Assembly: GCA_024803745.1 (NCBI GenBank)
Contig: JANJXV010000043.1
Coordinates: 2,563,501-2,627,500, forward strand
Source of the DNA: Megascapheus bottae
Lineage: Eukaryota; Chordata; Mammalia; Rodentia; Geomyidae
Reading direction: 5' to 3'
Length of the DNA: 64,000 nt
Part shown: piece by piece, positions 31,041-41,960 of the stretch
Numbering within the stretch: the first letter of the stretch is position 1
Layout of the letters: every line of letters begins with the position of its first letter
The notes under the pieces: generated by a model
The model's input: the letters and a program-made list of their open reading frames with translations, nothing else
What the model was told of the DNA's origin: nothing
The model's database searches: none
Program-made: the position numbers and the translations under genes

Positions 31041-31741
31041 ATGGAATTGCAAAATTTAACCCATGTCACTGAATTCCTTCTCCTCAGTTGTTCAGAGGAT
31101 CCAAAAATATAGATCATTCTCTTTGGTTCCTTTCTATTTATCTACCTGATCACTGTATTTGGAAATCTACTCATCATCCTGACCATCACCTCTGACCCCC
31201 ATGTTCTTCTTCCTCTCCAACCTATCCTTGGCTTACATCTGTTTCATTTCTACAACTATGCCCAAGATGCTGGTGAACCTCCAGAATCACAGCAGGGTCA
31301 TCTCTAATGGTGCCTGCCTGACTCAGATATCTCTATTCATTGTATTTGGAAACACAGATATTTTGCTTCTTACTGTCATAGTCTATGACCTCTTTGTGGC
31401 CATCTGTCATCCCCTGAATTACAATCTCATCATGGAGACTCATCTGTGTGCTCGTTGGTTCGGCTGTTATTTGTCACTAGCTTCTTGGCAGGACAGCTGC
31501 ATGTGTGGATGGCATTACAGATAACCCATTTCAAGGAACTAGAAATCCCAAGTTTCTTCTGTGACCCTTCTCAAGTCATAGACCTTTCCTGTAAAGACAC
31601 ACTCACAAATGCTACCTTCAAATATGTTCTTGCTACCGTAAATGGATTTCCTCCAAATTTTGGAATCCTTTTCTCTTAGTACAGAATTATTTCCTCAGTT
31701 CTGAGACTTCCGTCATCAGGAGGGAATTACAGAACCTTCTC
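31041..31741 (+). pseudogene. Olfactory receptor pseudogene, block C, 5' part
   Basis: Starts with an ATG (MELQNLTHVTEFLLL), the expected OR N-terminus. Lesions before the ERV: a TAG stop at 31110-31112, a deletion of about 14 bases near 31200 where TM2 begins, loss of Arg in the DRY-type motif (VYDLFVAICHPLNY), a frameshift near 31460, and a stop at about 31677. The piece ends in the loop before TM6, where P1 is inserted. The last six bases (31736-31741, cttctc) are repeated at 41731-41736 on the far side. The receptor is completed by 41731-41960. Its own stops would have disabled it regardless of the ERV. Confidence 0.9.
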
Positions 31742-32166
31742 TGTTGGGGTTTTTAGCACTCTTTGCATCCTGACCTGCAGGAAGGGCAAAGAGAACATGC
31801 CCCGACTAAGATGAGACCAAGAAAGGTTAGGGCCAGCTGGCCGCCTTCACCCAGCCCTCCCTCTCCAGAGGGAAGACACAGACTTGCCAGGGAGAAGGTC
31901 ACAGAAGACTCCTTTAATGGGGAAATACAAGGGGCTAAAGTAAGAAGCAGGAGTCTATTAGCATAAAATTAGGCAGGACAGTGGGAGGTAGGTGCGGTCA
32001 GAGAGGGTGGCAGGGCCAATCTATGGGTTCCAGGTAGCCTTATTTTACATCACAAACCACAGCCAATATTCCCAACCAGGAGACAGCATGGTTGGATTTC
32101 CAAAACCAGGAAGTGAACACTGGGCCACGAGGTAGGCCTTTTACCCTTGATGTGACGTGCCCCACA
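31742..32166 (-). mobile_element. P1 3' LTR
   Basis: In element orientation it begins tgtggggcacgtcac and ends in ...cccaaca. The ATTAAA-type poly(A) signal of the other copy is also found here ('tttaat' on the plus strand near 31913). It aligns end to end with 41307-41730. Confidence 0.9.
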
Positions 32167-32179
32167 TCTCCTCCCTTTT
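32167..32179 (-). promoter_or_regulatory. P1 polypurine tract
   Basis: The minus strand reads aaaagggaggaga immediately before the 3' LTR. That is the expected place and composition for the plus-strand DNA primer of a retrovirus. Confidence 0.85.
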
Positions 32180-35090
32180 GATTTATTAAGCAGGTATTTG
32201 CCTTACTTGAGAAGTGTGCCTGTCTTAGGTTGTCCCCCTCTGGACATCTTACCTGTAATTGACTACCACTCTAGCACTTCAGGCAATTTACCTGGAGGGT
32301 TGGCAGACCCAAAGAAGGTTTGAAATAAGGGGGATGGCCAACGTCAGCAAAGGAAACCCTTCTGTACACCTGCACATCCTGGTAAGGGCCGGGGTCAACC
32401 TCGCAGAATTCCCAGTCCGCCATCTCATACCACATAATATTGTTTCAAGACCACCATTAGCTGAACAGCTTACCCTGATCCTGCTTTCTAAGACACTGAA
32501 GGAGCTTATTGATTACACAAGGTCTGAATGTGAATACAAAACCCACTGTAACCAAGGGGCCCGCCCACAAAGGGGAGAAGGTAAGGGAGCCAACCATAGT
32601 CCAGTCCATAGATAGTTTGCATCGAATACATTTTGGTGGCAGTCGAGAACCTCCTGTAGCCTTTTTAAGCAGATCAAGGCCTCGACTATTTGGAGGACTC
32701 CTGCAGTCAGGAAATCAAGTTGAGATTGTAGGTAGCGTCTTTGTGGGTGGCGTGGATAATGATGCTCAGAATGAGGAGAAGGTGACTGAGGATTCCAACC
32801 ACAGCTCAGCAAGGCGTCCGGTATAGTCTCAATCCTGTGAACGAGAGAGAGAAAGCATACCTCAAGAGGGGGTGCTCTTGGGCAATCAGTTTTTTGCTTA
32901 CTGACAATATTTTAAATCTGTAGCCAGTAAGCAAATTGGGTTTGGTTCTCCCACCGGGAAGTCACATCCAAATCCTTTCCCCACATTAATGACGGGATCA
33001 TGGCCTCTCCATGATCCAGTAAGAGGATCTCTCCAACAGACTTCAACCTTTAAATAAGGTATCTGATTAGATTAATCTCTCTGAAAGGCAGTTAGAGGCT
33101 GATCCTTGGAAAAATTAGAAATAATGTAAGTATAGCTGTCCTCAATTGGTCATGGGGGTTGCCTCCCCCCTTTTGTTTTATTAAAACAAGGCCCATTACC
33201 CATTTTAACCTGTAGGGGTAAACTCAAGATTACAAAACATTGTAAAGAAAGGCTTTCAGCGTGTCAGGCTCTTTCACCGTAATGAGCAGTGGCCCAACAA
33301 GCATGTGAATGAGTATCTATAGACATAATTTTCTAAAGGGTGCTTAGTGGGTTACATCAGTCTGCCAGATAACATTAGGTTTAAGGCCCCAGGGAATGAC
33401 CCCAGGGGATTGTGGAAGTGAGACTTGTAAAACTGGTATGCACTATTTACATGTCCTCACAATCTTTTTTCTTTTTAAATGCAGATTTTAGAATCTTTAG
33501 AAAACTCATATTAACCAGTTTCTTGTGTTTAAATTATGAATTTATCCATTCTTTTGGTTGCTGACAATTTAACCTTGAACATGTTTACTCACACCAATTC
33601 ACACACACATTCATAAAGACCTTAAAGCATGCAAAATTAATATCGGCCGTACATTTTAAAAAGATTCACATACACACACTCACACAAACTAAAAAGATCC
33701 ATATTTAGGATGGTTATCAATTTTACCATAATACTTTTTGCGAATGAAGTTTGGGTGGGTGTCTTAAACCTAGGAGAACTAAGACTGAATTCTGCATCCT
33801 GCCACCAGCTGTCTCTAGAATGTCACTGCTAAGGCTGCAGCTGCTTTGTCTGGCCTAGTCTCACCTCCACTGCAGCTGTTTGGGAGGGGCCATACCAGGT
33901 CTTAGACCTACCCCAGGTGGGGATGAAACTTTTGCTTTCCAGAAATAAAGACAAAGAAGCAGAGACTTTTAAGAAACTCCTAAAGTTCTGATGGCATGCC
34001 TGGCCTTAAAATACCAGAGTGACGGAAAGACCGTGGGGCCCTGGAATTGGGAATTGAGGGGGCATGCCTCCCCTACGGAAATTTCCATTCCTTGGTAGCT
34101 GGCCAGTGGAGGCCATCTTAACCTACTCTCAAACAGAACCAGACATTGACTTACATTTAACACAACAACACGAACTCAGATGAACACTCACCAAACAACT
34201 TATTTAGACATGTCTTGCTGGTGAGACTCTCAGGCATGCCCTGTTACTGACAAGAAATCAGTAGGGGGTCAAGGCGTCCCTTGACCACACAGGCCTTAGA
34301 GAGCTTTTTTCGCTCAGCATTGCACTTTTTAGACAGACATACAGGGTGGTCGGCCAACTCTTACTTACCTCGGAGGCCTTTGCTTTAAACCTGGGCGTCT
34401 TTTCCAAAAAAGGTTGTTAAAGGAAAACCACTGTTTCTAGAAAAAAAGCAATATTTTATTTCAATAGCATAAATATACAAATTAATAGGAATTGATGAAA
34501 GACTTGGGAGCCCTGGTCGGGTGGCTCCCATAGGCGTATTTACTGCAGGGAGATCATGAAGAAATCTGTATTTGAAACTTGTATTTGCCTGATTCTTATT
34601 AACTTTAGTAGCTCCAATTGTTTTTCCAGCCTATAGGCCACTGCTCCCCATGTGATTAGACTGCGGCCTCTAGAATTGGGGGAGCACTTCTATGCTAATT
34701 TTATCATAACTAATGCAGTTATCATAGAATGCCACAACATCCATATCTTGCCTCTCCCTAGTGATTATAAGGCAGGTCCTCTTTAAGTGCAGCAGCTGAA
34801 TGGTTCTGTCCAGGAAGGGGCCTGCCAATTGCTAAGATGCTGCTAGGCCAGCTAGCCCAGGAGCTGCGGCCTGAGGCCGTTTCTAGAACCTGGGTACTTA
34901 AGGGTGAGAGGCAGGCGATTGTAGCTCCTCAGGGACAGGGTATTATAGGTGGAGTTAGGCCTAGTTGGCCTTGCTAACCACACCCATAACATCCTCTCCC
35001 AGCACCACTGGAAGAGGTAAGGGCATAGAAAACGCCTAGATCTTTTGGGCTTGTAGGGCCACAGCCAGCGTCTGTGACCTGTGGGCCTCA
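32180..35090 (-). other. P1 internal sequence, unassigned
   Basis: About 2.9 kb between the shared segment and the polypurine tract. Short open frames exist on both strands (up to about 120 codons), but I recognise no protease, reverse transcriptase, integrase or envelope motif. It could be decayed env or captured host sequence. 33590-33690 is rich in ACAC. Confidence 0.5.
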
Positions 35091-35094
35091 ATGC

Positions 35095-41284: not shown

Positions 41285-41303
41285 GTCCCACGTTTAGGCC
41301 CCA
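41285..41303 (-). promoter_or_regulatory. P1 degenerate primer-binding site
   Basis: The minus strand reads tggggcctaaacgtgggac three bases after the LTR. It resembles the tRNA-Lys1,2 site with a one-base insertion and about three substitutions, consistent with an old element. Confidence 0.6.
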
Positions 41304-41306
41304 GAA

Positions 41307-41730
41307 TGTCGGGATTTTTAGCACTCTTTGCCTCCCAACCAGCAGGAAGTGCAAAGAGAACAGGCCCCGACTAATACAAGACCAAGAAAGGTTAGAGCCA
41401 GCTGGCAGCCTTCACCCAGCCCTCCCTCCCAGAGGGAAGACACAGACACGCCAGAGAGAATGTCACAGCAGACTTGTTTAATGGGGAAATGCAAGGGACT
41501 AAAGTAAGAAGCAGGAGTCCATTAGCATAAAAGTAAGTAGGACAGTGGGAGGTAGCTGTGGTCAGAGAGGGCAGCAGGGCCAATCCATGGGTTCAAGATA
41601 TCCTTGTTTTACATCACAAACCACAGCCAACCCTCCCAACTAGGGGACAGCATGGTTGGATTTCCAAAAGCAGGAAGTGAGCACTGGGCCACAAGGTAGG
41701 CCTTTTACCCTTCATGTGACGTGCTCCACA
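41307..41730 (-). mobile_element. P1 5' LTR
   Basis: In element orientation it begins tgtggagcacgtcac and ends ...aatcccgaca. An ATTAAA poly(A) signal lies at 41477-41482 (minus strand). It aligns with 31742-32166 with roughly 11-12 percent differences by eye. Confidence 0.9.
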
Positions 41731-41960
41731 CTTCTCTACCTGTCTCTACCTGTGGGTCTCTACTGTCAGTGGTCTGCTTATTTTTTGGAATGGGTATAGG
41801 GGTCTACCTTGGATCCTCGGTGTCACAGTCTCCTGGAAATATTGCAGTCTCCTCAGTGATGTATGTGGGGGTCACACCTCTCCTGAACCCCTTTATCTAC
41901 AGCCTGTGGAGCAAGGACCTCAAAAGTGTCCTGAGCAGGTTGTACAAATCAGGAGGATGA
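41731..41960 (+). pseudogene. Olfactory receptor pseudogene, block C, 3' part
   Basis: Continues the receptor after the ERV. It starts with the TSD copy cttctc. It then encodes TM6 and TM7: 'CGSLLSVVCLFFGMG', 'GVTPLLNPFIYSLWSKDLKS', and a stop at 41958-41960. Near 41737-41760 a short 'ctctacctgt' unit is repeated, a small local duplication. The NPFIYSL signature is intact, although the usual RN after it is altered to WS. With 31041-31741 this makes one near-complete OR exon cut by P1. Confidence 0.9.

What the first reader, a model, noticed from the sequence alone, without database searches (positions are those of the whole stretch)
31041..41960. Three-level nesting: provirus within provirus within an olfactory receptor exon
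The OR exon is interrupted by minus-strand ERV P1 with a perfect 6-bp TSD (cttctc, 31736-31741 and 41731-41736). P1 is itself interrupted by plus-strand provirus P2 with a perfect 6-bp TSD (cagggc, 36309-36314 and 40834-40839). The layers give a strict order of events in one locus, with independent LTR clocks for each insertion.
Basis: seen in the sequence. Interest (0 to 1): 0.75.

Follow-up and report, generated by a model that had tools for sequence, protein, structure and literature searches.

The report
Nested proviruses with captured Y RNA

Summary
The nesting is real. P1 (31742-41730, minus) sits in an olfactory-receptor exon with TSD CTTCTC; P2 (36315-40833, plus) sits in P1 with TSD CAGGGC. 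The window's own genome settles it: an inverted duplicate 1.1 Mb away carries the same P1 at the same OR site without P2, reading through a single-copy target; six other OR paralogs lack P1. Order: P1, duplication, P2.

Corrections: an in-frame stop already lay in the OR before the duplication; the right OR flank has a 10-bp tandem duplication; P1's right end is mosaic between the duplicates, so its LTR clock (K2P 0.115) is unreliable (duplicate: 0.096). Nested proviruses are known (mouse nonagouti).

The surprise is inside P2. About 4.56 kb that relatives have between gag and the 3' region is gone, bridged by 95 nt of antisense Y RNA with an exact 5' end and no 3' tail. The 20 nt at its 3' edge match the gag site 17/20, the best site found in the relative scanned; P2 carries the Y-RNA letter at all three mismatches. 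Best reading: aberrant reverse transcription, perhaps with the Y RNA as primer. One fossil cannot prove it.

The parts
31041..31741 (+). left part of the olfactory-receptor pseudogene exon, ending in TSD copy CTTCTC (31736-31741); in-frame TAG at 31110-31112
   Evidence: (PF13853 1.1e-10 on 31183-31521)
31742..32166 (-). P1 3' LTR (left)
32167..36314 (-). P1 internal part left of P2; holds a gag capsid piece (35784-36020), a segment shared with P2 (35107-35788) and an integrase C-terminal piece (32901-33071); ends in P2 TSD copy CAGGGC (36309-36314)
   Evidence: Gag_p24 2.8e-15; IN_DBD_C 1e-4, 22.0 bits against cut-off 21
36315..36634 (+). P2 5' LTR
36637..36654 (+). P2 primer-binding-site-like 18-mer; lysine-tRNA type by recall only
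   Evidence: tRNA identity recalled, not tested
36749..38446 (+). P2 gag frame, 565 codons open; the last 17 residues and the stop (38393-38446) are read from antisense Y RNA
   Evidence: (Gag_p10, Gag_p24, Gag_p24_C, one zf-CCHC)
38389..38483 (-). captured Y RNA (Y3 type by recall), antisense to P2, exact 5' end at 38483, terminal GCCUUUU missing; Rfam places the match at 38381-38483
   Evidence: (RF00019, 67.1 bits, model 1-96)
38484..40513 (+). P2 3' internal region, full-length match to relatives; its left edge is the deletion scar
40514..40833 (+). P2 3' LTR
40834..40839 (.). second copy of the P2 TSD, CAGGGC
40840..41306 (-). P1 leader and start of gag, right of P2; mosaic relative to the duplicate
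41307..41730 (-). P1 5' LTR (right)
41731..41736 (.). second copy of the P1 TSD, CTTCTC
41733..41752 (+). 10-bp tandem duplication TCTCTACCTG x2 in the OR flank, overlapping the TSD copy
41737..41960 (+). right part of the olfactory-receptor pseudogene exon
   Evidence: PF13853 8.7e-6 on 41700-41957 (26.1 bits, cut-off 27)

Best explanation
Shown: a class II (ERVK-type) provirus P1 integrated into an olfactory-receptor exon; that OR-P1 locus exists in a second, inverted copy 1.1 Mb away that has no P2; a young provirus P2 of a family with many copies integrated into P1 in this copy only. P2 is an internally deleted family member: about 4.56 kb that relatives have between the gag zinc-knuckle region and the 3' region is absent, and 95 nt of antisense Y RNA lie exactly at the scar. 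Inferred: the scar was made during reverse transcription in the particle that gave rise to P2 (about 0.7). Most specific version (about 0.4): a Y RNA that had lost its 3' tail paired through its last 20 nt with the gag RNA, as a tRNA does at the primer binding site, and primed minus-strand DNA. That strand ran to the 5' end, transferred to the 3' end and copied U3 and the 3' region until it stopped near 38484. The plus strand then copied back through gag into the attached Y RNA up to its 5' end and joined the minus-strand end without homology. This would account for the antisense orientation, the exact 5' end, the missing 3' tail, the pairing at one edge only, and a deletion that begins exactly at the priming site.
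For: Nesting and order: TSDs and LTRs; natural P1 empty sites in 6 of 6 paralogs; natural P2 empty site in the P1 duplicate. P2 deletion: its 3' region 38484-40513 matches three relatives over its whole length (97.8, 97.3 and 96.1%), followed directly by their LTR; in the two relatives measured, L012/L032 and L020/L031, the distance across the scar is 4,568 bp from just after CCACG, i.e. 4,561 after TGGT. The 18 gag relatives fetched of 38 listed run through the site with an identical 20-mer; the 11 relatives fetched of 39 listed have family sequence, not Y RNA, left of 38484. Y RNA: Rfam 67.1 bits over the full model; the best other match listed is one locus, L010, with 87 bits and a TTTT end, 2 differences in 95 nt. 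Pairing: 17/20; rank 1 of 4,160 windows by duplex energy (-21.9 against -19.1 for the next separate site); 0 of 300 shuffled 20-mers reach 17 anywhere in the two pieces of one relative; best of 83 Y-RNA 20-mers. P2 has the Y-RNA letter at 3 of 3 mismatches, so those 20 nt came from the Y RNA, not from gag. The right junction shows 4/20 identity. Y RNAs are packaged by MLV and 7SL was patched into an experimental recombinant (PMC4997597: passages; section 10 part 1).
Against: A single fossil, and the 20-nt window was chosen after seeing the junction. Crossover within TGGT alone (4 nt) cannot be ruled out. One other Y-RNA 20-mer matches 16/20 elsewhere in the relative. The scan covered one relative, in two pieces. 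No source seen shows a Y RNA priming a retrovirus. Loss of the GCCUUUU tail before priming is assumed. For the order P1 then duplication, LTR site patterns are 6 (LTRs of one copy alike): 4 (duplicates alike): 2, which asks for LTR conversion or mosaicism. A search for P1 relatives that could show which copy is mosaic did not complete (last try).
Confidence: 0.88

Rival explanations
1. Template-switch patch: tRNA-primed reverse transcription as usual, but the growing plus strand left its template at gag TGGT, copied Y RNA to its 5' end, then landed on the 3' region, deleting pro-pol.
For: 4-nt junction match TGGT, antisense orientation and exact 5' end. Patch repair with host RNAs is described in PMC4997597 (section 10 part 1).
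Against: It does not need the further 13 of 16 matches on the far side of the junction, where P2 has the Y-RNA letters.
Confidence: 0.3
2. LINE-1 or break repair after integration: a tailless Y RNA retrocopy was made at a break in an integrated P2, with a 4.56-kb deletion.
For: L1 mobilises Y RNAs, and chimeric L1 insertions with Y RNA are reported (PMC13174262, passages). Tailless retropseudogenes with target complementarity to the last 2-18 nt are known (PMC5322556, passages).
Against: No poly(A); no direct repeat of 6 nt or more between the two flanks, the only 5-nt match lying away from the junctions. A primer on the P2 plus strand would have kept gag letters in the paired 20 nt, but P2 has Y-RNA letters at 3 of 3 mismatches. 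The large deletion is unusual for an L1 event (from general knowledge).
Confidence: 0.25
3. The two P1 copies are independent insertions at one site, not a duplicated insertion.
For: Four-LTR patterns 6:4:2 favour LTRs of one copy resembling each other; 40840-41730 differs by K2P 0.157-0.168.
Against: Same base, same TSD, OR similarity on both sides (K2P 0.049-0.074), same 10-bp tandem duplication and same TAG; the rest of P1 is as similar as the OR flanks (0.070-0.088).
Confidence: 0.03
4. Assembly artefact or chance TSDs.
For: The assembly holds at least one 100% identical 3,467-base pair of stretches on different contigs, L035 and L037, possibly duplicated contigs.
Against: Two TSDs with proper LTR ends plus natural empty sites.
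Confidence: 0.02

Closest known systems
Mouse nonagouti allele: beta4 ERV nested in VL30 in the agouti gene (PMC6677723; abstract, section 7)
   Same: Provirus within provirus within a gene; the inner one has a 6-bp TSD and 5' and 3' LTRs of one age; a nested order of events.
   Different: Intronic with a phenotype; the inner beta4 has gag, pro, pol and env. Here the host gene is a pseudogene exon, the outer element is class II, and the inner one is internally deleted with a Y-RNA scar.
Patch insertions of host RNA in retroviral recombinants, including 7SL (PMC4997597, section 10 part 1; the 7SL paper itself is not held)
   Same: Host Pol III RNA at a non-homologous junction in a retroviral genome.
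   Different: Here a Y RNA in a natural germline provirus, antisense, with an exact 5' end and a 17/20 match at one edge. The orientation of the 7SL insert was not seen.
Tailless retropseudogenes and L1 chimeras with Y RNA (PMC5322556 passages; PMC13174262 passages)
   Same: Small RNA copied without poly(A), with pairing at the 3' side.
   Different: No TSD and the target replaced by a 4.56-kb deletion; no L1 part in the scar.
Internally deleted non-autonomous class II ERVs (mouse IAP deletion types, ETn; recalled)
   Same: LTRs, leader and gag kept, pol lost.
   Different: The deletion is bridged by an identifiable host RNA and no second copy with this scar was listed.

Membership tests
Class II (ERVK / betaretrovirus-like) provirus: P2 | Betaretroviral Gag domains | tested here: met
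   Gag_p10 3.2e-11, Gag_p24 3.5e-39, Gag_p24_C 8.9e-21; ERVK gag proteins in 32 hits, best 45% over 97%
Class II (ERVK / betaretrovirus-like) provirus: P2 | Two LTRs with TG..CA ends and a 6-bp TSD | tested here: met
Class II (ERVK / betaretrovirus-like) provirus: P2 | Own pro and pol genes | tested here: not met
   About 4.56 kb present in two measured relatives is absent; 5 of 11 post-gag pieces of 45 aa or more scanned, none matched a Pfam family at E up to 1
Class II (ERVK / betaretrovirus-like) provirus: P2 | Lysine-tRNA primer binding site | tested here: inconclusive
   18-mer at 36637-36654 seen; compared with recalled tRNA ends only
Class II provirus: P1 | Betaretroviral Gag and integrase pieces, two LTRs, 6-bp TSD | tested here: met
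   Gag_p24 2.8e-15, IN_DBD_C 1e-4; 20 of 28 P1-sense pieces of 45 aa or more scanned
Olfactory receptor gene | PF13853 / 7tm domain | tested here: met
   1.1e-10 left part, 8.7e-6 right part (below the curated cut-off); no Pfam match for the third OR piece 31389-31676
Olfactory receptor gene | Open, functional frame | tested here: not met
   In-frame TAG, 14-bp and 1-bp deletions, 10-bp duplication, P1
Y RNA | Rfam RF00019 above gathering score | tested here: met
   67.1 bits, cut-off 38
Y RNA | Y3 type | not tested
   Named by recall; Rfam has one Y family
Y RNA | 3' oligo(U) tail | tested here: not met
   GCCTTTT of L010 is replaced by gag sequence
Tailless L1 retropseudogene | Flanking TSD of 8-35 nt | tested here: not met
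   No repeat of 6 nt or more between 38355-38400 and 38465-38530 (exact matches only)
Tailless L1 retropseudogene | Target sequence resumes after the insert | tested here: not met
   Family sequence resumes 4.56 kb further on

The most novel reading that the evidence does not exclude
A cellular Y RNA, not a tRNA, primed reverse transcription of a germline retroelement: its 3' end paired with a primer-binding-site-like stretch in gag, it was carried into the provirus as an antisense copy ending at the RNA's exact 5' end, and the stretch between the false priming site and the stalled minus strand was lost. If so, fossil proviruses record wrong-primer events, and a scan for antisense Pol III RNAs with exact 5' ends at deletion scars would find more.
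Probability: 0.4. Interest if true: 0.72.

Novelty: new variant of a known kind. Interest (0 to 1): 0.5.

Why it matters
The nesting itself is ordinary genome archaeology, though with a natural duplicate that dates the layers from outside. The inner scar matters more: packaged host RNAs other than the primer tRNA have no settled role in reverse transcription (PMC4997597, section 10 part 1), and this is a germline fossil in which one of them was copied into a provirus with both ends readable. It makes a testable prediction about where such scars start and how they end.

Tried and rejected
L1-type insertion of the Y RNA was tested by looking for a TSD and poly(A): neither was found.

That 38484-40513 is captured host transcript was my first idea, because it has no long frame, holds a short stretch like a repeat elsewhere in the window (39693-39752) and its 131-residue frame found no relative. 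Dropped: it is the family's own 3' region.

That the segment shared by P1 (35107-35788) and P2 (38867-39645; 677 sites, 84% identical) was captured twice was left open; it lies in the P2 family's own 3' region.

Continuity of P1 by protein comparison was weak on the leader side (27% over 81 columns, E 0.30; capsid side 8.7e-8), so the natural empty site was used.

P1 relatives to settle the mosaic were sought but did not complete. tRNA scan: 0 genes.

Literature. Among the titles and abstract starts listed I saw no Y-RNA-primed or Y-RNA-bridged provirus. The most direct, (Y RNA + endogenous retrovirus + template switch), held 4 papers, of which I read passages of one. Absence from print is not shown.
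Full report
What was checked. Both LTR pairs and both TSDs are where it said. P1's LTRs agree at 379 of 424 aligned sites (K2P 0.115), P2's at 316 of 320 (0.0126). At the same spacings, equal 6-mers occur at 20 of 53,999 and 20 of 59,469 positions of this window, so neither TSD is likely by chance.

Empty sites. The own genome is held (unnamed, 2.84 Gb, window at C43:2563501-2627500). The first OR search scored 40 of 713 candidates. Six uninterrupted OR paralogs among the eight fetched loci (L003-L008) have the left and right OR halves adjacent (6 of 6): natural empty sites for P1. The remaining non-self locus, L002, 91% identical and 1.12 Mb away in inverted orientation, has P1 at exactly the same base. 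The larger stretch L029 shows that P1 copy without P2: window 36308, the TSD and 40840 map to 5492, 5493-5498 and 5499 of its reverse complement, reading CCTCCTCAGGGTGAGGCTC where the window has CCTCCTCAGGGC, P2, CAGGGCGAGGCTC.

Order and clocks. P1 came first, then the duplication (OR left K2P 0.074, left LTR 0.075, P1 internal 0.088 and 0.070, OR right 0.049 and 0.053), then P2 in one copy. Against a clean clock: 40840-41730 differs between the duplicates by 0.157 and 0.168, with a sharp fall at the OR border (windows 0.14 to 0.04), and a patch at 35903-36202 is raised too (0.11-0.13). Private changes are 27 in the window's right LTR against 9, 11 and 18 in the other three, few of them CpG-type. 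Informative LTR sites split 6 (LTRs within a copy alike), 4 (duplicates alike) and 2. I read this as conversion or mosaicism, more likely in the window copy. L029's own LTR pair gives 0.096. Absolute ages need a rate for this lineage and are not given.

The OR. It has an in-frame TAG at 31110-31112 that L029 shares and that 6 of 6 paralogs lack; the 14-bp and 1-bp deletions are in the window copy only. A 10-bp tandem duplication (TCTCTACCTG, 41733-41752) in the right flank is absent from the three in-window paralogs and present in L029 with one letter different. So the OR was dead before the duplication; whether it was dead before P1 cannot be told.

Host. The OR paralog at 11695-12384 has its highest identities among the 120 listed hits to Thomomys bottae OR7E-type proteins (up to 84% over 50% of the query; higher-scoring rows from squirrel, pangolin and others are 44-68% identical). 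P2's Gag is closest to Dipodomys spectabilis (45% over 97%). A geomyoid rodent is likely; that is inference.

P2's anatomy. A 320-bp LTR, a PBS-like 18-mer, a gag frame of 565 codons with p10, p24, p24_C and one zinc knuckle, then a surprise. Rfam's only gathering-level match in the window is a Y RNA on the minus strand at 38381-38483 (67.1 bits, full model). P2 relatives (L011-L028, 18 fetched of 38 listed; 40 of 2,273 candidates scored) run through this point with an identical gag 20-mer in 18 of 18. Three relatives whose region after the junction is held carry the Rfam gag/pro frameshift element shortly after it (3 hits in 17 loci), which P2 lacks. P2's 3' region 38484-40513 matches relatives over its full 2,030 bases (97.8, 97.3 and 96.1%), directly followed by their LTR. 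In the two relatives measured, 4,568 bp lie across the scar, 4,561 counted after TGGT. In one search (40 of 2,386 candidates scored) 39 other copies were listed; the 11 fetched all have family sequence left of the junction, nine for about 1.5 kb and two (an identical pair) for 258 bp.

The Y RNA. The best other match listed is one locus, L010 (87 bits, full model, ending GCCTTTT), with 2 differences in 95 nt. P2 keeps the exact 5' end and lacks GCCTTTT. P2's Gag frame would end in 17 residues read from antisense Y RNA (38393-38443), replacing the second knuckle that relatives have. There is no poly(A) and no flanking direct repeat of 6 nt or more.

The pairing. The 20 nt of Y RNA at the gag side match the gag site 17/20. 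By duplex energy this is rank 1 of 4,160 windows in the two pieces of one relative (-21.9; next separate site -19.1). 0 of 300 shuffled 20-mers reach 17 (two reach 16). Among all 83 20-mers of the antisense Y RNA it is the single best, though another 20-mer reaches 16/20 at a different place. The window was chosen after the junction was known. P2 has the Y-RNA letter at all 3 mismatches. The other edge shows no homology (4/20).

Mechanism. Three routes were weighed. If gag DNA had been the primer (L1 or a plus strand annealed over the 20 nt), the 20 nt would keep gag letters; they do not. A plus-strand jump at TGGT alone is possible but leaves the further 13/16 match unexplained. A Y RNA acting as primer accounts for all features, including why the deletion begins exactly there. 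I put reverse transcription in the particle at about 0.7 and the primer version at about 0.4. Packaging of Y RNA by MLV, patching of 7SL and patch repair are from PMC4997597 (passages; section 10 part 1). PMC7472051 (passages) notes Y RNA, 7SL and U6 among co-packaged RNAs.

Known or new. Nested proviruses in a gene are known (PMC6677723, abstract and section 7), so the finding as given is ordinary. The Y-RNA scar is a new variant of a known kind, host-RNA patches in retroviral DNA.

Noticed in passing
38381-38483: Antisense Y RNA at a 4.56-kb deletion scar in P2; became the main result.
   Followed up: yes
35107-35788 and 38867-39645: P1 and P2 share a segment of about 680 bp (84% identical, K2P 0.18) although their LTRs and gag DNA do not match by blastn; in P1 it follows a cut-off capsid gene and a further 67-bp match (33472-33538 with 38591-38655) is in a different order, so P1 is rearranged.
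   Followed up: partly
32901-33071: P1 keeps an integrase C-terminal piece although no other pol domain was seen in the 20 of 28 P1-sense pieces scanned.
   Followed up: partly
40840-41730: The right end of P1 is about twice as diverged between the two duplicates as the rest: conversion or mosaicism.
   Followed up: partly
41733-41752: 10-bp tandem duplication in the OR exon overlapping the TSD copy, shared with the duplicate locus.
   Followed up: partly
11725-12629, 45781-46646, 52690-53566: Further OR-like sequences in the window; 40 OR matches were scored for the own genome, all on contig C43.
   Followed up: partly
28541-28733 and others: An abundant repeat of about 190 bp (20 rows in the window), probably a SINE.
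   Followed up: no
L035 and L037: Two stretches on contigs C1135 and C9 are 100% identical over 3,467 bases, possibly duplicated contigs in the assembly.
   Followed up: no
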